From the NCBI RefSeq assembly GCF_001704295.1, contig NZ_CP012334.1, positions 186,001 through 250,000 of the forward strand: 64,000 bases of DNA, in the 5' to 3' direction. The translations under genes were made by a program, and so were the position numbers. A model generated the notes under the pieces. The model had not been told where the DNA came from, searched no databases, and saw only the letters and a list, made by a program, of their open reading frames with translations. The stretch's first letter is position 1, and every line of letters starts with the position of its first letter. Origin of the DNA: Bordetella sp. H567. Its GTDB lineage: Bacteria > Pseudomonadota > Gammaproteobacteria > Burkholderiales > Burkholderiaceae_B. Of the stretch, positions 9,669 through 54,005 are shown one piece after another.

Positions 9669-9867
9669 GCGGCCGCAGCCCCGGGCCCCGTGCGTGGGAA
9701 CGGCCGCCGCACGGGTTTGCCCCGGCCCGTTCGGCGGCGCCCCTTCCGCCGGCCATCCCGCCGTACTACGGGCTTTGTCCCTGCCGCGGACGCGGCCTTG
9801 GCGGCCGCCCCGGTCACGGCTGGCATACAATGCGTTCCATGCTGCCTAGCGGCGGCATGCAGTACGT
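9669..9867. other. Intergenic spacer with ribB promoter
   Basis: About 200 bp between the SET gene and the riboswitch, very GC-rich, with no convincing coding frame. The ribB promoter should lie in its last part (GGCATACAATGCG near 9825 resembles an extended -10), but no clear -35 can be named. Confidence 0.35.
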
Positions 9868-10022
9868 CTTCAGGGCGGGGTGCAATTCCCCACCGGCGGT
9901 AGGCCACGCAACGTGGCAAGCCCGCGAGCGCCCGCGGTCCGGCAACGGTCGGCGGGGTCAGCAGATCTGGTCAGATGCCAGAGCCGACGGTCATAGTCCG
10001 GATGAGAGAAGATGTGCCGGCA
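9868..10022 (+). promoter_or_regulatory. FMN riboswitch (RFN element)
   Basis: The conserved RFN segments are all present in order: CTTCAGGGCGGGGTG, AATTCCCCACCGGCGGT, a variable hairpin arm, GTCAGCAGATCTGGT, CCAGAGCCGACGG and the closing GTCATAGTCCGGATGAGAGAA. It lies about 100 nt upstream of ribB, so FMN should switch off ribB expression at the level of transcription or translation. Recognition rests on these universally conserved segments. Confidence 0.96.
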
Positions 10023-45574: not shown

Positions 45575-45655
45575 CGAAAAAGACATCGGCCCCGTGAGGG
45601 CGGGGCCGATGGGTACTGCACGAGAGGAGCACCGGAAGACGCCCCGCCTCTCTTC
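45575..45655 (-). ncRNA. Structured 3' element with terminator, copy 0
   Basis: Minus strand, ~80 nt after the stop of the small exported protein gene at 45733. GAGAGGCGGGG, a variable loop, CCTCTCG, GCAGTAC, then a strong terminator hairpin (ATCGGCCCC pairing with GGGGCCGAT) and GTCTTTTT. The same order and the same conserved words occur after the four tandem paralogues 6-8 kb away. It could be a 3'-derived small RNA or only a strong terminator. Confidence 0.5.
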
Positions 45656-45732
45656 GGGGCTGCTGCCTGCCTTATGGGCGGGCGGCCGGTCTGGTCGGCC
45701 GGCGTGTCCGCCGGCGCCTCGCCGTTCCGGGC

Positions 45733-46062
45733 TTAAACGCCTTGGAACGGCTGGTTGTCGATGTCGCCGAACGCGACGTCGCCGTGTGCGCTACCCGTGG
45801 AAGCCGCCGCAGGCACGGAGGGCGCCGCGGTCTGCGCGGTGAACGGCGCGTTGTCCACGTCGTCGTTGCCGGTCAGGCCGGCCGCGCGCGCTTGCTGCAG
45901 TTGGGCCACGACCTGGTCGCGGCTGGTGGCCTGGCTGTCTACCTGGCCGTACACGCCTTGGAAAGGCGTGTTGTCGACGTCGCCGCGCGGGGTGCCCGCT
46001 TGGGCGCCGGCCACCAGGGCCAAGGACAGGGCGACGGATGAAACGATGGTTTGGATCTTCAT
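45733..46062 (-). CDS. Small exported protein with three DNxPF motifs (family member 0)
   Basis: 109 aa. Sec signal MKIQTIVSSVALSLALVAGAQA. The mature part has three evenly spaced motifs, DVDNTPFQGVYGQ, DVDNAPFTAQ and DIDNQPFQGV, with TSRDQVVAQLQQARAAGLTG between the first two, which recalls DUF4148-type exported proteins. It is the divergent paralogue of the four tandem genes at 51.2-53.8 kb. Start ATG 46062, chosen for the signal peptide. The function is unknown. Confidence 0.8.
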   Translation of the reverse strand: MKIQTIVSSVALSLALVAGAQAGTPRGDVDNTPFQGVYGQVDSQATSRDQVVAQLQQARAAGLTGNDDVDNAPFTAQTAAPSVPAAASTGSAHGDVAFGDIDNQPFQGV

Positions 46063-46150
46063 GGCACTTCTCCAGTAGTCGATTGAGGAAACAGGGGGCA
46101 GTTGCGCTGCGCTTGTTTCCGACGCATGGATATTGTGCGCGTCAGAATGG

Positions 46151-46200
46151 TAGGGATAAACCCTTGGTCCGCGAATACACTTTTCCAAATAGCGGACCAA
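46151..46200 (-). promoter_or_regulatory. Promoter-proximal motifs of family member 0
   Basis: Minus-strand GGGTTTATCCCTA (46151-46163), identical to the word upstream of tandem copy 1, next to a 9-bp perfect inverted repeat TTGGTCCGC ... GCGGACCAA (46164-46172 and 46192-46200, 19-nt spacer). Local AT content is high. The likely promoter and operator of the small-protein gene; the regulator is unknown. Confidence 0.5.
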
Positions 46201-46267
46201 TAGAAAAAGGTTGCGATGTAAAAAAGTATAAATCGATAGTGTCGACCTATGTAGCCGAGGCAGCGAT

Positions 46268-47746
46268 TTATCGATTGAACGCTACCTTTTCGCGTCCCGG
46301 CTCCGTGGCCGCCGCCAAGGCGCGCGCCGTGTCCACCGGCCTGGCGGCCGTGGCCGCCGGGTAGCGCAGCGTGAAGCGGATATGGCCGTCCGGGGACGAT
46401 TCCACCCGCGCGCTCCCACCGTGCAGCGCCATGATGGCCCGCACGATGGCCAGTCCCAGGCCGCTGGCGTCGGACCCGGCGCTGCGCGACACGTCGGCGC
46501 GATAAAACCGGTCGAACAGCTTTCCCAGCCGTTCGCGCGGGATGGGCGCGCCGTGGTTGTCCACGTGCACCAGGACGGCATCGGCGGTGGTTTCGGCCGA
46601 TAGCGTGACCGTGCTGTCCGCGTCGGCATAACGCACGGCATTGGCCACCAGGTTGCCCAGGGCCCGGCGGAACAGGATGGCGTCCGCATGGACGTGGCCC
46701 GCCGCCTCGCAGCGCAGCTGGATGCCGCGTTCCTCCGCCAAGCCCTCGAAATAGTCCGCCACGCGGGCCAGCTCCGTCGCCAGGTCCAGCTGCGCGTGGT
46801 CCAGCGCCGATTGGGCATTGTCGGCGCGGGCCAGGAACAGGATGTTTTCCACCAGGCGCGACATGCGTTCCAATTCTTCCAGGCCGGACGCGAGCACGCT
46901 TTCATAGTCCTCCGGCGTGCGGCGCTGATACAGGGCCACCTGGCAATTCCCTATCAGCGCGCCGATGGGCGTGCGGATTTCGTGCGCAAGGTCGGCGGAG
47001 AACTGCGTCAGGCGCTGATAGCCGTCGGCCAGGCGGTCCAGCATGGCATTGAACGAGGCGGCGACCTCGCGCAATTCTTGTGGTGTATCGGCCAGGTTCA
47101 GGCGCTGGTCCAGGTTGGCCGGGGTGATGCGGGCGGCCTGCGCCGCCATGGCGCGCAGCGGCCGCAGGCCGCGCCGCAGGGCCAGGTAGCCCAGCATCGC
47201 GATGGACAGGAAGGCCGCCGCCGTCGCCAGGGCGATCCGCCGGCGGTAATCGCGCAGCATGCGCGTTTCGTTCACCAGCAGATGCGCGGCCTGCACTTCC
47301 ACGGCCCTCCCGTCCACGGTACGCGTCATCGCGGCCACCACGCGCATGGCGCCGCCCTGGGCGGTCAGGGCGGGATGCACGTCGCCCGTCGCGAGCGGTT
47401 GGTCCTGCGCCACCGGCACGATGGCCGGCAGTGTCTGCCCGCCCGGGTTGATGTCCATTACCGGTCCCGTGCGGGGCATGCGGAAGATCAGGATGTCCTG
47501 TTCATTGCCCAGCATGTTTTCGAACAGGGCGGGCCGCGCGCGGATTTCATCCAGCGTGAGCGTATCGCGCAGCAGCATGCGAAAGCGTTCGACCCGGCCG
47601 ACCAGCCCGACGTCGCCACGGAAAATCATGCTCGCTTCCATGGACTTGTACAGGTAGACGCCCGCCATGCTGACGACCAGCGCCGCCAGCAACGCGAACA
47701 TCAAGGCGGTGCGCAGGGTCAGGGAGCGTCGGCGTTGTCCGCGCAT
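46268..47746 (-). CDS. Two-component sensor histidine kinase (CusS/HprS type)
   Basis: 492 aa. TM1 ~residues 12-33, a ~135-residue periplasmic sensor domain, TM2 ~170-190, HAMP, phosphoacceptor His255 in [15 protein letters not shown]-box [11 protein letters not shown]-boxes [11 protein letters not shown]. It overlaps its response regulator gene by 28 bp. Related to heavy-metal (CusS, CopS, IrlS) and oxidative-stress (HprS/YedV) sensors. The nearby periplasmic molybdoenzyme/cytochrome b pair favours an HprRS-like role. Confidence 0.92.
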
Positions 47747-48414
47747 TCGCGCACCTCGCAGACGTAGCCGATGCCGCGTACGGTATGAATCAGCTTGGAT
47801 TCGAAAGGACGGTCCACCTTGGCGCGCAGCCGCTTGATCGCGACGTCGACCACATTGGTATCGCTGTCGAAGTTCATGTCCCAGACTTCCGACGCGATGA
47901 TGGCCCGCGAGAGGACTTCGCCTTCGCGGCGCACCAGCAGATGCAGCAGCGTGAACTCCTTGGTGGTCAGCGCGATGGCGGTATTCATGCGGGTGACGCG
48001 GCGCCGCAGCACGTCGATGTGCAGGTCCGCCAGGCTGAGGTGGTCCGCCTCGCGCACCACGCCGCGCCGCAGCAGCGTGCGCACGCGCAGCACCAGCTCG
48101 GTAAAGGAAAACGGTTTGACCAGGTAGTCGTCCGCGCCCAGTTCCAGGCCGCGTATGCGATCCTGCAGGTGGTCGCGCGCGGTCAGGAACAGCACGGGCA
48201 CGTCCTTGTGCCTGCGCAGCGTTTCCATGATCTGCCAGCCGTTGATGCCTGGCAACATGACGTCCAGCACGATCAGGTCATAGCGCTGTTCCAGCGCCAG
48301 GTGCAGGCCATCCGCGCCGTGGCGCGCCAGATCCACCGCGTAGCCCGATTCGCTCAGCCCTTTCTTCAGGTACTCGCCGGTTTTGAGGTCGTCTTCGACC
48401 ACCAGTATGCGCAC
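47719..48414 (-). CDS. OmpR-family response regulator (CusR/HprR type)
   Basis: 231 aa. Receiver domain with phospho-acceptor Asp51 ([14 protein letters not shown]), the switch Lys in [10 protein letters not shown], and a C-terminal winged helix with [21 protein letters not shown]...[12 protein letters not shown]. It is translated first and overlaps the kinase gene. A CusR-like box lies 53 bp upstream of its start, in the gap shared with the divergent operon. Confidence 0.94.
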
Positions 48415-48466
48415 ACCGCACCTCTATTGCCTGCCGACGATTCTATCGGTTTGCATCCACCGCTTC

Positions 48467-48482
48467 ATGACATTATTGTCAT
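48467..48482. promoter_or_regulatory. CusR/HprR-like operator
   Basis: ATGACA-TTAT-TGTCAT, a palindrome with 6-bp arms, resembles the TGACA/TGTCA boxes bound by CusR/CopR-type regulators. It lies between the response-regulator gene and the divergent operon that starts at 48594, so it could control both. Confidence 0.65.
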
Positions 48483-48593
48483 CCACGCGTCATCTTGCCG
48501 TCCCCCTGCGGGCGGCAGGATAGATTTGTCGTCCCTGCGGGGACTTTCCCGCCGGCCGCTCCCGCGGCCCGGCATTGCCTGACGGAGAAGCGT

Positions 48594-49241
48594 ATGAACA
48601 AGCGTTATCGGATCGGCGCCTTGTGCGCCGGCGTACTGCTGGCGGGGGGCATGACGGGCGGTATGGCCGTAGCCCAGGCCCAGCAAGCCCAGCAGGCGCC
48701 GGCGAACCGCCTGGCGGTGCGTGGCAAGATCGAGCAGATTACGGACACCACGCTGCTGGTCAAGGCACGCAACGGCAAGGACGTCAGCATGGCGATTCCG
48801 CCCAATGTCGCGGTGCGCGCCGTGTCGCTGGCGAAGCTCGGCGATATCAAGCCCGATAGCTTCATCGGCACGGCCGCAACGCCGCAGCCGGACGGCACGC
48901 TGAAGGCCCTGGAAGTCCATGTCTTCGCGGCCTCGCTGCGCGGCTCGGGCGAGGGCAACCGGCCGTGGGAAGGCGCGGACGGCAAGACCGGTCAGATGAC
49001 CAACGGTACGGTAGGCAGCCTGGTCGGCACCAATGGCACCACCATGAAGGTCAAGTACAAGGACGGAGAAAAAACCGTGGTCGTGCCGCCCGACGTGCCC
49101 ATCGTCTACATGGAACCCGGCGACCGCGCCTTGCTCAAGACCGGTGCGCCGGTGCTCGTGTTCCCGACCAAGAACGCCGACGGCAGCCTGACGGCCAGCA
49201 CGATCGTCGCGGGCAAGGACGGCACGATACCGCCGATGTAA
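48594..49241 (+). CDS. Exported DUF5666-like protein
   Basis: 215 aa with a signal peptide (MNKRYRIGALCAGVLLAGGMTGGMAVAQA). The body has two repeats of a small beta-barrel type, LAVRGKIEQITDTTLLVKARNGKDVSMAIPPNVAVRAV and NGTVGSLVGTNGTTMKVKYKDGEKTVVVPPDVPIVYM, seen in DUF5666 proteins. First gene of the molybdoenzyme operon. ATG has GACGGAGAAGCGT before it. Function unknown, possibly a periplasmic partner. Confidence 0.75.
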   Translation: MNKRYRIGALCAGVLLAGGMTGGMAVAQAQQAQQAPANRLAVRGKIEQITDTTLLVKARNGKDVSMAIPPNVAVRAVSLAKLGDIKPDSFIGTAATPQPDGTLKALEVHVFAASLRGSGEGNRPWEGADGKTGQMTNGTVGSLVGTNGTTMKVKYKDGEKTVVVPPDVPIVYMEPGDRALLKTGAPVLVFPTKNADGSLTASTIVAGKDGTIPPM

Positions 49242-49258
49242 GGCCGGGGAGATCACTT

Positions 49259-49939
49259 TTGTCCGTACGTCCACTTGGCAACGCGGAGTCGCCTGGACCG
49301 GGTGCGCGCCCGCGTGCCCATGGGCCGCGATTCCGCCGCCCAAGCGCCCACCCGCTTTATGTGCGCATCACGCACTGGCTGAACGTCTATGCCATGGCCT
49401 GCATGTTCATGAGCGGGTGGGGCATCTACAACGCCTCGCCGATCTTCGGCTTCAGCTTCCCGCAATGGGCCACGCTGGGCGGCTGGCTGGGCGCCGCGAC
49501 CATCTGGCATTTCGCGGTGATGTGGCTGCTGGTCGGAAACGGATTGGTGTACCTCGTCGCCGGCATCGCGTCCGGCCATTTGCGCCGCGACCTGATGGAC
49601 GTGACACCCAGGGCCGTCGCGCACGATGCAGTGGCGGCGCTGAAGCTGCGCCTGCCGCATACGCCGGGCCGCTACAACGCCGTGCAGAAAGTGTTGTACC
49701 TGGCCGTCCTGGTGCTGGGCGTGCTGATCGTGCTGTCCGGCCTGGCCATCTGGAAGCCCGTGCAGCTGAGCGAGCTGACGGATCTGTTCGGCGGCTTCGC
49801 GGCCGCGCGCATCGTCCATTTCTGCGCCATGGCCGGCATCGGCCTGTTCGTGGCGGTGCACCTGTTGTTGGTGATCCTCGTGCCCCGCACCCTGCCGCCG
49901 ATGATCACCGGCCGCGCCCACGGAGCCCCCGATGCCTGA
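49259..49939 (+). CDS. Membrane cytochrome b561-type subunit
   Basis: 226 aa, four hydrophobic helices with His residues placed as haem ligands: RITHWLNVYAM, ATIWHFAVMW, RIVHFCAMAG and FVAVHLLLVIL. It should pass electrons between the quinone pool and the periplasmic molybdoenzyme encoded next. The start is a TTG at 49259 with GGGGAGA six bases upstream; no ATG lies before the first helix. The start is inferred. Confidence 0.85.
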   Translation: MSVRPLGNAESPGPGARPRAHGPRFRRPSAHPLYVRITHWLNVYAMACMFMSGWGIYNASPIFGFSFPQWATLGGWLGAATIWHFAVMWLLVGNGLVYLVAGIASGHLRRDLMDVTPRAVAHDAVAALKLRLPHTPGRYNAVQKVLYLAVLVLGVLIVLSGLAIWKPVQLSELTDLFGGFAAARIVHFCAMAGIGLFVAVHLLLVILVPRTLPPMITGRAHGAPDA

Positions 49940-50693
49940 ACGCAAACGTCCGCGCCTGATCCTGGAGCCTGCCCAGCGCAGCCAGCTGCATCGCGCGCAG
50001 CGCCGCCTGCTGCTGCGCGGCGGCCTGTCGCTGGGCGCGCTGGCCATGATGAGCGGATGCAATATGCAGGACGGCGATACCTTCGACAAGGTGTTGTGGG
50101 CCATGTCGCGCTGGAACGACCGTGTGCAGGCCTGGCTGTTCAACCAGAACAAGCTCGCCCCCACCTACGCGGCCAGCCAGGTCACCGATCCGTTCCCCTT
50201 CAATGCCTACTATCCGGAATACAGCGTGCCGGATGTCGACGTGTCCGCCTGGCGCCTGGAGGTCTCGGGCATGGTGGCCGACAAGCACGCGTGGACCTTG
50301 CAGGAATTGCGGCAACTGCCGCAGGCCAGCCAGATCACGCGACTGATCTGCATCGAAGGCTGGAGCGCCATCGGCCAGTGGAGCGGCATTCCGCTGAAGG
50401 CCTTCCTGCAACACATCGGCGCCGATCTCACCGCGCGCTATGTCGGCTTCAAGTGCGCCGACCGCTATTACGGCAGCATCGACATGCCGACGGCCCTGCA
50501 TCCGCAAACCATCCTGGCGCTGGACTTCGGCGGCTCCGAACTGCCGGCCGATTACGGCCAGCCGCTGCGCCTGCGCGTACCCACCAAGCTGGGCTTCAAG
50601 AACCCCAAGCACATCGTAGCGATGTTCGTCACGAACACCTATCCCGGCGGGTATTGGGAAGACCAGGGTTATAACTGGTTCAGCGGGATCTAG
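49932..50693 (+). CDS. Molybdopterin-dependent oxidoreductase of the sulfite-oxidase/MsrP fold
   Basis: 253 aa. SUOX-fold domain with the Cys ligand to molybdenum in TRLICIEGWSAIGQWSG, KCADRYYGSIDM and PADYGQPLRLRVPTKLGFKNPKHI. The N-terminus RRLLLRGGLSLGALAMMSGCN combines a basic start, a hydrophobic stretch and a Cys that could be a lipobox. It overlaps the cytochrome gene. It resembles the MsrPQ (YedYZ) arrangement, though the membrane partner is a b561 type rather than MsrQ. The substrate could be a sulfoxide or sulfite. Confidence 0.87.
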   Translation: MPERKRPRLILEPAQRSQLHRAQRRLLLRGGLSLGALAMMSGCNMQDGDTFDKVLWAMSRWNDRVQAWLFNQNKLAPTYAASQVTDPFPFNAYYPEYSVPDVDVSAWRLEVSGMVADKHAWTLQELRQLPQASQITRLICIEGWSAIGQWSGIPLKAFLQHIGADLTARYVGFKCADRYYGSIDMPTALHPQTILALDFGGSELPADYGQPLRLRVPTKLGFKNPKHIVAMFVTNTYPGGYWEDQGYNWFSGI

Positions 50694-51000
50694 TTCCAGG
50701 CACCAGCCCCCGCGGGCCGTAGCGGGGCCTGTGGGCTGACAGCTGCGCCCCCTGCATCGATGGCACGGCGCTTCAGACTCCGCGTTCGACGTCCCGAGCC
50801 CGATTGTCCAGAGCGGGGTGGCGCGCGGGGCCGGCGAGGCCTGCAGCAGCCGTGACCATCCGCGCTTCGTCGCGGGCGCGCTGCAGCCCGGCACCGCTCC
50901 CTATACCAAGAAATCAACCGGTCTTGCCGACCTTCAATAGTCGCGCCTTATGAACGCAATAGTCGGATTCTTGGAATAGTTCTGGATTAGTTCTGAAAAT
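50694..51000. other. Intergenic region before the tandem array
   Basis: No gene seen. It begins with an imperfect hairpin (CAGCCCCCGC ... GCGGGG ... GGGCTG, ~50704-50738), the likely terminator of the molybdoenzyme operon. The last 60 bp are AT-rich (TTGGAATAGTTCTGGATTAGTTCTG) and lead into tandem unit 1. Confidence 0.45.
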
Positions 51001-51023
51001 GGAAAGATGATTTTCGAATATCC

Positions 51024-51036
51024 GGGTTTATCCCTA
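51024..51036 (+). promoter_or_regulatory. Conserved promoter-proximal motif, unit 1
   Basis: GGGTTTATCCCTA, 120 bp before the start codon. The same word precedes the 45.7 kb paralogue, and close variants lie at 51757-51766 (GGTTTATCCC), 52474-52483 (GGTTTATCGC) and 53356-53365 (GGTTTATCCC) in units 2-4. Confidence 0.5.
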
Positions 51037-51155
51037 GGTCTTGGCGGCGCAGAATGCGTTTCATCGGGAACAGCAACGGACATCGCGAACTTCCCAACGT
51101 TAACGAAATCGCGATGCACGGCCCGAACCACTCAACCAGGACTAGGAGTACTGCC

Positions 51156-51461
51156 ATGAAAGCCAAGACCATCGTTTCCGCTCTGATTCTTTCTTTCGCC
51201 GCCATCGGCGCCGCGCAAGCCGCCAATAGCGAACCGAACAACGTGCCCTTCCAAGGCGTCTACGGCCAAGCGGCCAACAGCGTGAGCCGCACCCAAGTGC
51301 TGGCCGAGCTGCAGCAAGCGCGCACCGCCGGCCTGACGGGCAACGCCGATATCGACAACGCGCCCTTTACCGCCCAGGTGGACAGCGGCGTGAGCCGCGC
51401 GCAGATCGCGCTGGGCTCGGATTTCGGTGACTCGAACAACCAGCCGTTCCAAGGTGCCTAA
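51156..51461 (+). CDS. Small exported DNxPF-motif protein, tandem copy 1
   Basis: 101 aa. Signal MKAKTIVSALILSFAAIGAAQA, then three motifs EPNNVPFQGVYGQ, DIDNAPFTAQ and DSNNQPFQGA. Between them lies VSRTQVLAELQQARTAGLTGNA, which resembles the conserved segment of DUF4148 proteins. ATG 51156 has AGGACTAGGAG upstream; the frame is open before it but the upstream part is not a signal sequence. No cysteine in the mature part. Function unknown. Confidence 0.85.
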   Translation: MKAKTIVSALILSFAAIGAAQAANSEPNNVPFQGVYGQAANSVSRTQVLAELQQARTAGLTGNADIDNAPFTAQVDSGVSRAQIALGSDFGDSNNQPFQGA

Positions 51462-51550
51462 GCACCCACGGCGATTCCAGCCACGGGTGGCGTGATCGGC
51501 GATCGAGTTATCGGGCGCAAAGATCGGGTCCGGCCGCATCGCGGGCCACG

Positions 51551-51677
51551 CCACCAGGAAGTCCGGCCGTTCATGCCTGTAAGGGTGAACGGTTTCCCCG
51601 GCGAGAGGCGGGGATGCTGTAAGTGGCAGTCCTCTCGGTGCAGTACGTCGGCCCTCCTTGCGAGGGCCGATTTCTTT
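51551..51677 (+). ncRNA. Structured 3' element, unit 1
   Basis: CCACCAGGAAGTCC, hairpin CCGTTCA...TGAACGG, a second stem CGAGAGG...CCTCTCG enclosing CGGGGATGCTGTAAGTGGCA, GCAGTAC, then the terminator TCGGCCCTC-CTTGC-GAGGGCCGA with TTTCTTT. It is more conserved between units than the spacer before it. Confidence 0.55.
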
Positions 51678-51885
51678 ACGGCCGCCGAAACGGGTTTTCT
51701 CCTGGAATAGGCAGTGGATTGACTAAAAAAACGGAAAGATGATTTTCGGCTACGCCGGTTTATCCCCCCGTCTCGGCGGCGCAGAATGTGTTCCATCGGG
51801 AACAGCAACGGACATCGCGAAACTTCCCAACCAACCAATCGCGATGTACGGCCCGAATCACTCAACCAGGACTAGGAGTACTGCC

Positions 51886-52191
51886 ATGAAAGCCAAGACC
51901 ATTGTTTCCGCTCTGATTCTTTCCTTTGCCGCCATCGGCGCCGCGCAAGCCGCCAACAGCGAACCGAACAACGTGCCCTTCCAAGGCGTCTACGGTCAAG
52001 CCAGCAACAGCGTGAGCCGCACCCAAGTGCTGGGCGAGCTGCAACAAGCGCGCACCGCCGGCCTGACGGGCAACGCCGATATCGACAACACGCCCTTTAC
52101 CGCCCAAGCCGATAGCGGCGTGAACCATGCTCAGATCGCCCGGGGCTCGGATTTCGGCGATTCGAACAACCAGCCGTTCCAAGGTGCCTAA
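51886..52191 (+). CDS. Small exported DNxPF-motif protein, tandem copy 2
   Basis: 101 aa, same layout as copy 1. Differences are few: SNSVSRTQVLGEL in place of ANSVSRTQVLAEL, DIDNTPF for DIDNAPF, and NHAQIARGSDFGDS near the end. Shares the AGGACTAGGAGTACTGCC leader just before the ATG. It is closest to copy 3. Confidence 0.85.
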   Translation: MKAKTIVSALILSFAAIGAAQAANSEPNNVPFQGVYGQASNSVSRTQVLGELQQARTAGLTGNADIDNTPFTAQADSGVNHAQIARGSDFGDSNNQPFQGA

Positions 52192-52280
52192 GCACCTGCG
52201 GCGATTACAACCACGGGTGGCGTTATCAAGCGATCGGGTGATCGAGAAAGGTATCGGGTCCGACAGTATCGCGATCCCGC

Positions 52281-52407
52281 CACCAGGAAGTCCTGCCGTT
52301 CATGCCTGTACGGATGAACGGTTTCCCCGGCGAGAGGCGGGGATGCTGTAAGTGGCAGTCCTCTCGGCGCAGTACATCGGCCCTCCTTGCGGGGGCCGAT
52401 TTTTTTG
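52281..52407 (+). ncRNA. Structured 3' element, unit 2
   Basis: Same order as in unit 1: CCGTTCAT...ATGAACGG hairpin (8 bp), GAGAGG...CCTCTC stem, GCAGTAC, terminator ATCGGCCC...GGGGCCGAT followed by seven T. Confidence 0.55.
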
Positions 52408-52604
52408 CCACCGTCGATTTGGGATAGGCAGTCGATTGACCAAAAAAACGGAAAGATGATTTGCGGCTACGGCGGTTTATCGCCCGGTCTCGGCGGCGCA
52501 GAATGCGTTTCATCGGGAACAGCAACGGACATCGCGAACTTCCCAACGTTAACGAAATCGCGATGCACGGCCCGAATCACTCAACCAGGACTAGGAGTAC
52601 TGCC

Positions 52605-52910
52605 ATGAAAGCCAAGACCATCGTTTCCGCGCTGATTCTTTCCTTTGCCGCCATCGGCGCCGCGCAAGCCGCCAACAGCGAACCGAACAACGTGCCCTTC
52701 CAAGGCGTCTACGGTCAAGCCAGCAACAGCGTGAGCCGCACCCAAGTGCTGGGCGAGCTGCAACAAGCGCGCACCGCCGGCCTGACGGGCAACGCCGATA
52801 TCGACAACACGCCCTTTACCGCCCAAGCCGACAGCGGCGTGCGCCACGCGCAGATCGCCCGCGGCTCGGATTTCGGCGATTCGAACAACCAGCCGTTCCA
52901 AGGTGCGTAA
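52605..52910 (+). CDS. Small exported DNxPF-motif protein, tandem copy 3
   Basis: 101 aa, almost the same as copy 2 (RHAQIARGSDFGDS instead of NHAQIARGSDFGDS). Signal peptide and three NxPF motifs intact. Copies 2 and 3 look like the most recent duplication within the array. Confidence 0.85.
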   Translation: MKAKTIVSALILSFAAIGAAQAANSEPNNVPFQGVYGQASNSVSRTQVLGELQQARTAGLTGNADIDNTPFTAQADSGVRHAQIARGSDFGDSNNQPFQGA

Positions 52911-53007
52911 GCACCGACGGCGATTCCAGCCACGGGTGGCGCGATCAAGCGATCGACTGATCGGATGATCGGCAAAGAGATTGAGTTCGACCGCATCGCG
53001 GACCACG

Positions 53008-53134
53008 CCACCAGGAAGTCCTGCCGTTCATGCCTGTACGGATGAACGGTTTCCCCGGCGAGAGGCGGGGATGCTGTAAGTGGCAGTCCTCTCGGCGCAG
53101 TACCTCGGCCCTCCTTGCGGGGGCCGGTTTTTTT
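53008..53134 (+). ncRNA. Structured 3' element, unit 3
   Basis: Same hairpin, GAGAGG/CCTCTC stem, GCAGTAC and terminator (CTCGGCCC...GGGGCCGG, then seven T). The terminator's outer base pairs differ from unit 2 while the stem remains paired. Confidence 0.55.
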
Positions 53135-53483
53135 GCGCGAACGGAAAAAGCGGTTTTTTCTCCCTGATGCCGATGAGCCTTTCAGCGCCACTACCCCGTG
53201 TTGACCTTCAAGTTAGAAGTCCGGGTCTTCCGAACACTCACGCAAGAAGCCACGGGCTTACGAACGCATCCTGCGACTTGCAAACCCATGACCGGTATCC
53301 CGGAGTAGGTGGGGGGATTGACTAAAAAAACGGAAAGATGATTTGCGGCTACACCGGTTTATCCCCCGGTCTCGGCGGCGCAGAATGTGTTTCATCGGGA
53401 ACAGCAACGGACATCGCGAACTTCCCAACCGACCAATCGCGATGCACGGCCCGAACCACTCAACCAGGACTAGGAGTACTGCC

Positions 53484-53789
53484 ATGAAAGCCAAGACCAT
53501 CGTTTCCGCTCTGATTCTTTCCTTTGCCGCCATCGGCGCCGCGCAAGCCGCCAATAGCGAACCGAACAACGTGCCCTTCCAAGGCGTCTACGGCCAAGCG
53601 GCCGACAGCGTGAGCCGCACCCAAGTGCTGGCCGAGCTGCAGCAAGCGCGCACCGCCGGCCTGACGGGCAACGCCGATATCGACAATGCGCCCTTTACCG
53701 CCCAGGCGGACAGCGGCGTGAGCCGCGCGCAGATCGCGCTGGGCTCGGATTTCGGTGACTCGAACAACCAGCCGTTCCAAGGTGCATAA
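53484..53789 (+). CDS. Small exported DNxPF-motif protein, tandem copy 4
   Basis: 101 aa, closest to copy 1 (SRAQIALGSDFGDS and DIDNAPF shared; ADSVSRTQ instead of ANSVSRTQ). The order 1, 2, 3, 4 with 1 similar to 4 and 2 similar to 3 suggests block duplication or gene conversion. Confidence 0.85.
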   Translation: MKAKTIVSALILSFAAIGAAQAANSEPNNVPFQGVYGQAADSVSRTQVLAELQQARTAGLTGNADIDNAPFTAQADSGVSRAQIALGSDFGDSNNQPFQGA

Positions 53790-53877
53790 GCACCCACGGC
53801 GATTCCAGCCACGGGTGGCGTGATCGCGCGATCGGATGATCGGCAAAGATACCGGATCCGACCGCATCGCGATCCCG

Positions 53878-54005
53878 CCACCAGGAAGTCCGGCCGTTCA
53901 TGCCTGTACAGATGAACGGTTTCCCCGGCGAGAGGCGGGGATGCTGTAAGTGGCAGTCCTCTCGGTGCAGTACGTCGGCCCTCCTTGCGAGGGCCGATTT
54001 CTTTT
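53878..54005 (+). ncRNA. Structured 3' element, unit 4
   Basis: CCGTTCAT...ATGAACGG, CGAGAGG...CCTCTCG, GCAGTAC, and terminator TCGGCCCTC...GAGGGCCGA with TTTCTTTT, nearly identical to unit 1. Confidence 0.55.

What the first reader, a model, noticed from the sequence alone, without database searches (positions are those of the whole stretch)
45575..54005. A shared structured 3' element follows five paralogous small-protein genes at two loci
After the stop codon of each of the five DNxPF-motif genes there is the same series: GAGAGGCGGGG, a loop of changing length, CCTCTCG, GCAGTAC, then a terminator hairpin with a T-run. At the 45.7 kb locus the protein has diverged (109 aa) and the loop sequence is entirely different, yet these words and the pairing persist. 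The four tandem copies add a further CCGTTCA/TGAACGG hairpin. Conservation beyond what a terminator needs suggests a 3'-derived small RNA or regulatory 3' UTR. The terminator stems also differ between units with pairing kept.
Basis: partly seen in the sequence, partly recalled or inferred. Interest (0 to 1): 0.72.

Follow-up and report, generated by a model that had tools for sequence, protein, structure and literature searches.

The report
Pseudoknot RNA element behind DUF4148 genes
A group of Bordetella- and Achromobacter-like bacteria ends many copies of one small-protein gene family with the same knotted RNA shape, and in one genome the RNA stands without its gene, so it is probably an undescribed regulatory RNA made from the tails of messenger RNAs.

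Summary
The five window copies are 5 of 18 in this genome and of 41 in six genomes of one genus. 39 of the 41 follow a complete DUF4148 gene, one follows a gene cut by a contig end, one stands alone. GAGAGG/CCTCTC is half of the fold: the adjacent CGGGG pairs with an upstream CCCCG, giving an H-type pseudoknot between a covarying hairpin and a terminator. Both pseudoknot helices show compensatory changes in a structure-free alignment of 36 distinct copies. In 16 tandem-type units the pseudoknot region varies about elevenfold less than third codon positions. No Rfam family reaches threshold and I found no convincing copy outside the genus. In one genome the element follows a DUF4148-type promoter with the ORF missing. 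Best reading: a new, genus-specific 3'-UTR small RNA or regulatory 3' UTR. There are no expression data. Pairing with the genes' own start regions is suggestive in part of the copies and absent in others.

The parts
45733..46062 (-). DUF4148 gene, 109 aa, host of the minus-strand copy
   Evidence: Pfam PF13663, 30.8 bits, cut-off 27
45612..45696 (-). Element, minus-strand copy (hairpin A, pseudoknot, tail)
   Evidence: Covariance model R1, 60.6 bits, E 6e-12
45655..45659 (-). S1 5' strand CCCCG of the minus-strand copy
   Evidence: Sequence; pairing counted
45647..45652 (-). S2 5' strand GAGAGG
45642..45646 (-). S1 3' strand CGGGG
45622..45627 (-). S2 3' strand CCTCTC
45576..45611 (-). Terminator hairpin and T-run
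   Evidence: 11-bp hairpin followed by TCTTTTTC
51024..51055 (+). Conserved promoter-like block GGGTTTATCCC..CAGAAT upstream of unit 1
   Evidence: Shared by most host genes and the orphan copy
51144..51155 (+). Ribosome-binding region AGGAGTACTGCC; GTACTGC is complementary to the tail GCAGTAC
51156..51461 (+). DUF4148 gene, tandem unit 1
   Evidence: PF13663
51556..51647 (+). Element, tandem unit 1
   Evidence: R1 101.5 bits
51567..51592 (+). Hairpin A of unit 1 (CCGTTCAT/GTGAACGG)
   Evidence: 7 of 8 pairs have both-sided changes across copies
51596..51600 (+). S1 5' strand CCCCG
51603..51608 (+). S2 5' strand GAGAGG
51609..51613 (+). S1 3' strand CGGGG
51614..51630 (+). Loop 3
   Evidence: Length 12-17 nt across copies
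51631..51636 (+). S2 3' strand CCTCTC
51640..51646 (+). Tail word GCAGTAC
51647..51678 (+). Terminator of unit 1
   Evidence: 10-bp hairpin with T-rich tail
51886..52191 (+). DUF4148 gene, tandem unit 2
   Evidence: PF13663
52285..52376 (+). Element, tandem unit 2
   Evidence: R1 102.5 bits; terminator behind it
52605..52910 (+). DUF4148 gene, tandem unit 3
   Evidence: PF13663
53013..53104 (+). Element, tandem unit 3
   Evidence: R1 102.5 bits; terminator behind it
53484..53789 (+). DUF4148 gene, tandem unit 4
   Evidence: PF13663
53883..53974 (+). Element, tandem unit 4
   Evidence: R1 102.9 bits; terminator behind it

Best explanation
A genus-specific RNA module in the 3' UTR of DUF4148 messenger RNAs: a 5' word (mostly AAGTCC), a covarying hairpin, an H-type pseudoknot (S1 CCCCG/CGGGG, S2 GAGAGG/CCTCTC), a short tail and usually an intrinsic terminator, about 125 nt in all. 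Shown: the recurrence behind this gene family, the two pseudoknot helices by compensatory change, and stronger conservation than its surroundings in the own genome. Inferred: it acts as a small RNA, released from the mRNA 3' end by processing, or in one genome transcribed directly from a DUF4148-type promoter; the pseudoknot is the stable body, loop 3 and the tail are free to pair with targets. The likeliest targets, weakly supported, are start regions of the DUF4148 family itself (feedback on the paralogues).
For: 41 copies in 6 of 6 genus genomes; 39 of 41 have a PF13663 match just upstream (positions held; one of these matches, G000:42583, is under the family's cut-off). On the MAFFT alignment made without structure S1 pairs in 178 of 180 cells and S2 in 216 of 216; 14 cells are changed on both sides, shuffled mean 1.7, 0 of 500 as high, slid controls 0-1. 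S1 was not in the search model. S2 pair 2 is A-U in 30, G-C in 4 and C-G in 2 rows; on the host-gene tree G-C arises once (support 100/99) and C-G once (95/87). Diversity in 16 own tandem-type units: pseudoknot region 0.012, element 0.034, third codon positions 0.131, spacer 0.132. The stop-to-element distance runs from -1 to 156 nt. Orphan L041: promoter part 77% identical to that of L057 (142 columns), then element plus terminator hairpin 95% identical (123 columns), no DUF4148 ORF between.
Against: No RNA data. Only one orphan; its hairpin has too few T for my terminator test, and an intact structure may only mean recent gene loss. The number of pairs with a both-sided change (3) is reached by 26 of 500 shuffles. 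S1 inner-pair A-U rows do not form one clade (2 changes). Outside the own genome conservation is less clear: in 16 MKTIAT-type units the whole element (0.27) varies more than third codon positions (0.23), the pseudoknot region less (0.17). Loop 3 pairing to the own start region is not significant in 11 of 24 rows. With a 9.6 kcal/mol penalty and no coaxial stacking the pseudoknot is lower than the nested fold in only 17 of 36 copies. The tail word also occurs as repeats in other transcripts.
Confidence: 0.5

Rival explanations
1. Cis-acting 3' UTR: the pseudoknot only protects the DUF4148 mRNA from 3'-to-5' exonucleases or sets its life time; no separate RNA acts.
For: 40 of 41 copies sit behind a DUF4148 gene or its end; the element directly precedes a terminator in 34 of 40 distinct copies; a compact knot near the 3' end fits such a role (general knowledge).
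Against: The orphan copy has no ORF to protect; a terminator hairpin alone usually gives such protection (general knowledge), which does not explain the conserved sequence of the pseudoknot region.
Confidence: 0.3
2. Start-region feedback: the element, on the same mRNA or as a released RNA, pairs with the ribosome-binding sites of DUF4148 genes and limits their translation, S2 opening to free an anti-Shine-Dalgarno strand.
For: Own genome and G005: tail GCAGTAC is complementary to GTACTGC at the ribosome-binding site (p 0.007-0.020 against shuffled start regions in L009 x3, L011, L040; 0.033-0.076 with the element side shuffled). Other four genomes: loop 3 GCAGTTC against GAACTGC (p 0.003-0.12 in ten rows). 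GGAGTACTGC occurs 20 times in the own genome, 18 of them at DUF4148 start codons.
Against: No significant loop 3 match in L033, L040, L011, L052, L060, L061, L048, L057, L034:1056, L043 and the window minus copy, and no tail match in most rows of the other four genomes. The test was chosen after seeing the sequences and rows are related.
Confidence: 0.2
3. A passive passenger or REP-like repeat copied along with the gene family, without function of its own.
For: 16 near-identical units in arrays show recent amplification; one genus only.
Against: Compensatory changes in both helices and less change than in neighbouring spacer and third codon positions in the own genome; no copy seen away from DUF4148-type promoters or genes.
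Confidence: 0.08

Closest known systems
3'-UTR-derived small RNAs of proteobacteria (class recalled from general knowledge)
   Same: Between stop codon and the gene's own terminator; unpaired candidate seed words.
   Different: Body is an H-type pseudoknot; up to 18 genomic copies behind one gene family; no expression, processing or Hfq evidence. My paper searches showed no such family, in a library that lacks most subscription journals.
Betaproteobacteria toxic small RNA, Rfam RF02278
   Same: Small betaproteobacterial RNA with a CUCC-type stretch before a terminator.
   Different: 16.3 bits against a gathering score of 50 on the minus-strand copy, not among the three matches up to E 10 on unit 1; its model is two plain hairpins.
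H-type pseudoknots of compact riboswitches or frameshift signals (recalled)
   Same: Short loop 1, no loop 2, loop 3 across a 5-bp S1.
   Different: Lies behind the stop codon; the minus-strand copy and the last tandem copy face convergent ORFs, so no downstream gene to control; no Rfam riboswitch reaches threshold.

Membership tests
H-type pseudoknot | Two interleaved helices, each kept through changes on both sides | tested here: met
   S1 178 of 180 and S2 216 of 216 cells paired on a structure-free alignment; both-sided changes in 2 S1 pairs and 1 S2 pair; 0 of 500 shuffles reach the 14 changed cells
H-type pseudoknot | S2 5' strand inside the S1 loop with possible loop lengths | tested here: met
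   Loop 1 of 2 nt (1 where the seventh S2 pair forms), loop 2 of 0, loop 3 of 12-17 nt
H-type pseudoknot | More stable than the nested alternatives | tested here: inconclusive
   Lower in 17 of 36 with a fixed penalty and no coaxial stacking
3'-UTR-derived small RNA | In a 3' UTR, sharing the gene's terminator | tested here: met
   39 of 41 behind complete DUF4148 genes; terminator right behind 34 of 40 distinct copies
3'-UTR-derived small RNA | A separate short RNA exists | not testable with these tools
   No RNA-seq; one gene-less copy behind a promoter block
3'-UTR-derived small RNA | Base pairing with target mRNAs | tested here: inconclusive
   Own start-region pairing in part of 24 rows only; other targets not tested
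3'-UTR-derived small RNA | Hfq or ProQ binding | not testable with these tools
   Needs co-immunoprecipitation
Betaproteobacteria toxic small RNA RF02278 | Gathering score reached | tested here: not met
   16.3 against 50 bits
Any Rfam 15 family | Gathering score reached over the element | tested here: not met
   Window: only an FMN riboswitch elsewhere; 11 related loci: no match

The most novel reading that the evidence does not exclude
In this genus the DUF4148 genes are in effect carriers of a multicopy pseudoknot small RNA: the RNA is the conserved product and the protein a dispensable, fast-changing cargo; its S2 helix is a switch that hides an anti-Shine-Dalgarno strand and seed with which the RNA silences the whole paralogous family.
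Probability: 0.13. Interest if true: 0.82.

Novelty: new variant of a known kind. Interest (0 to 1): 0.62.

Why it matters
It adds a structured RNA family not in Rfam, with compensatory changes in both helices of a pseudoknot in a bacterial 3' UTR. It gives a handle on DUF4148, a family without known function whose operon was among the most induced under arsenite and antimonite in an Achromobacter strain (PMC11719878, one passage seen). The gene-less copy makes the question 'is the RNA or the protein the product?' directly testable.

Tried and rejected
Plain GAGAGG/CCTCTC stem with unpaired CGGGG: rejected, since CGGGG pairs with CCCCG (178 of 180 S1 cells). Riboswitch for a downstream gene: rejected for the window, where the minus-strand copy and the last tandem copy face convergent ORFs. 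Copies elsewhere: a pattern scan of genome contigs gave 11 stretches, 9 from Achromobacter sp. HZ34 (3), Bordetella sp. LUAb4 (5) and A. aloeverae (1), plus one Streptomyces and one Syntrophomonadaceae stretch that I take as chance and did not inspect (the pattern fixes S1 letters, and records near the own genome may be left out); viral contigs 0; plasmids 0 with 561 bases of unit 1. The exact pattern's one hit in another family (L017) has no DUF4148 gene and no CCCCG. Weak model hits outside the genus (L143-L146) and two inside it (L148, L149) read like coding sequence or lack the CCTCTC partner. Pseudoknots of the same geometry behind DUF4148 genes of other genera: 2 of 18 rows, the same gene twice, with 1.0 expected from shuffles (of 19 loci one was dropped for lack of an ORF, some genes are in twice, L076 is of the same genus). 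A looser descriptor behind 20 hand-chosen genus DUF4148 genes without a model hit: 4 of 20, unlike the element (not all such genes were taken). Protein search of genome contigs: no relative. Rfam below threshold: only weak matches, the best ybhL leader at 23 bits against 50. Tail word as a seed: weakened by GNAGTAC repeats in unrelated transcripts and by the word's frequency. I did not search the spacers for promoters.
Full report
Check of the observation. In the whole 5.53-Mb genome the exact core pattern occurs 18 times, against 0 for the pattern read backwards. The five host proteins are DUF4148, PF13663, above its cut-off. The window holds one Rfam match at gathering score, an FMN riboswitch at 9862-10017, not the element.

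Collecting copies. Covariance model R1, built from 15 copies with hairpin A and S2 but not S1, found 41 copies in 6 of 6 genomes of the genus (18, 3, 4, 7, 7 and 2), and matches in 6 of 268 family genomes, the same six, under stricter filters. Model R2 found the same 41 among 40 close genomes plus five weak hits (E 0.11-0.44); those I looked at read like coding sequence. In 399 genomes of the order it matched the own genome, one of the same genus and one other at E 0.006, where the printed stretch lacks a CCTCTC partner. By equal contig lengths three of the genomes are Achromobacter aloeverae AVA-1, Achromobacter sp. HZ34 and Bordetella sp. LUAb4. The window's own species was not established.

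Structure. On a MAFFT alignment made without structure (36 distinct copies, A4) S1 pairs in 178 of 180 cells and S2 in 216 of 216; 14 cells are changed on both sides (shuffled mean 1.7, 0 of 500 as high; slid controls 0-1), while the number of pairs with such a change, 3, is reached in 26 of 500 shuffles. The two unpaired S1 cells are A/A at the outer pair of L054 and L055. Hairpin A is paired in 71% of cells there and in 91% on the model-fitted alignment, with 7 of 8 pairs changed on both sides. On a tree of 34 host genes (the two rows without a whole gene left out) S2 pair 2 goes from A-U to G-C in one supported clade and to C-G in another; the S1 inner pair G-C/A-U needs two changes. Helix order and loop lengths are those of an H-type pseudoknot. 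Simple energy sums put it level with the nested fold (lower in 17 of 36, mean difference -0.4 kcal/mol) without a coaxial-stacking term.

Constraint. In 16 MKAKT-type units of the own genome pairwise diversity is 0.012 in the pseudoknot region, 0.034 in the element, 0.092 in the terminator, 0.085 in promoter and leader, 0.131 at third codon positions and 0.132 in the stop-to-element spacer. In 16 MKTIAT-type units of the other four genomes the contrast is weaker: 0.17 in the pseudoknot region, 0.27 over the whole element, 0.23 at third positions, 0.31 in the spacer with 65% gaps (12 of 16 spacers long enough).

Position and the orphan. 39 of 41 copies follow a complete DUF4148 gene, one follows the end of a gene at a contig border, one has no gene; the stop-to-element distance runs from -1 to 156 nt. 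Its two halves align to L057 at 77% over 142 columns and 95% over 123, with about 510 bases, the ORF included, missing between. This is the main evidence that the RNA can be a unit of its own; it does not prove selection after gene loss, and its T-run is poor.

Function. A hairpin with at least 4 T behind it follows 34 of 40 distinct copies directly. Of the other six, four (L034:147, L036, L054, L055) run into GNAGTAC-like repeats and two (L041, L034:1056) have a hairpin with too few T. Pairing with the own start region was tested on 24 rows. In the own genome and G005 the tail GCAGTAC matches GTACTGC next to the Shine-Dalgarno sequence (p 0.007-0.020 against shuffled start regions in five rows; 0.033-0.076 with the element side shuffled), and loop 3 of the tandem type is borderline (0.063-0.070). 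In ten rows of the other four genomes loop 3 GCAGTTC matches GAACTGC (0.003-0.12; 0.003-0.17 with the element side shuffled). In 11 rows loop 3 does not match significantly: L033, L040, L011, L052, L060, L061, L048, L057, L034:1056, L043 and the window minus copy. GGAGTACTGC occurs 20 times in the own genome: 18 at DUF4148 start codons, one of them a gene without the element, and two not at gene starts. Feedback on the family is possible, not shown. Convergent ORFs behind two window copies speak against control of a downstream gene.

Literature. DUF4148 with sRNA: 0 papers. DUF4148 alone: 9, none about RNA by title or abstract start. Pseudoknot with Bordetella and Achromobacter: 3, none on this subject by title. 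Pseudoknot, sRNA and '3 UTR-derived': 0, though the spelling may miss papers. H-type pseudoknot, sRNA and Hfq: 0. Bordetella and Achromobacter sRNA papers were seen as listings only. Passages of PMC4603805 name RF02278 in Burkholderia cenocepacia. One passage each of PMC11719878 and PMC13037405 was seen. Most subscription journals are not held.

Verdict. A real pseudoknot RNA element that I found described nowhere in these searches, known so far from one genus. Pseudoknot fold about 0.93 likely, action as a released small RNA about 0.5, start-region feedback about 0.2.

Noticed in passing
L139, L135, L129, L128, L078; tails of L036, L054, L055, L034:147: GNAGTAC-like repeats (10 AGTAC copies in 320 nt in L139, seven of them 15 nt apart) in 3' UTRs of DUF4148 genes of this genus and of one gene in another genus (L078).
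   Followed up: partly
L162, L170, L154: Similar repeats directly before a tRNA-Arg gene and a tRNA-Gly gene, and upstream of a gene that looks like ribosomal protein L35 (name recalled). Genome-wide, triple AGTAC is not above the backward control, so only the places are notable.
   Followed up: partly
window 46268-50693: Between the two DUF4148 loci lie a sensor kinase and response regulator pair and a molybdopterin oxidoreductase gene, possibly a metal or oxidative stress set (recalled resemblance).
   Followed up: no
L009 and L010 (own genome 5.6-46 kb) and window 51.0-54.0 kb: 16 near-identical DUF4148 units with promoter and element in arrays of 4, 5 and 6 and one single copy, all in the first 240 kb of the contig: apparently recent amplification.
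   Followed up: partly
upstream of the DUF4148 genes, e.g. window 51000-51060: A strongly conserved promoter-like block (GGAAAGRTGATTT..GGGTTTATCCC..GCGCAGAAT) shared by most host genes and the orphan; its regulator is unknown.
   Followed up: no
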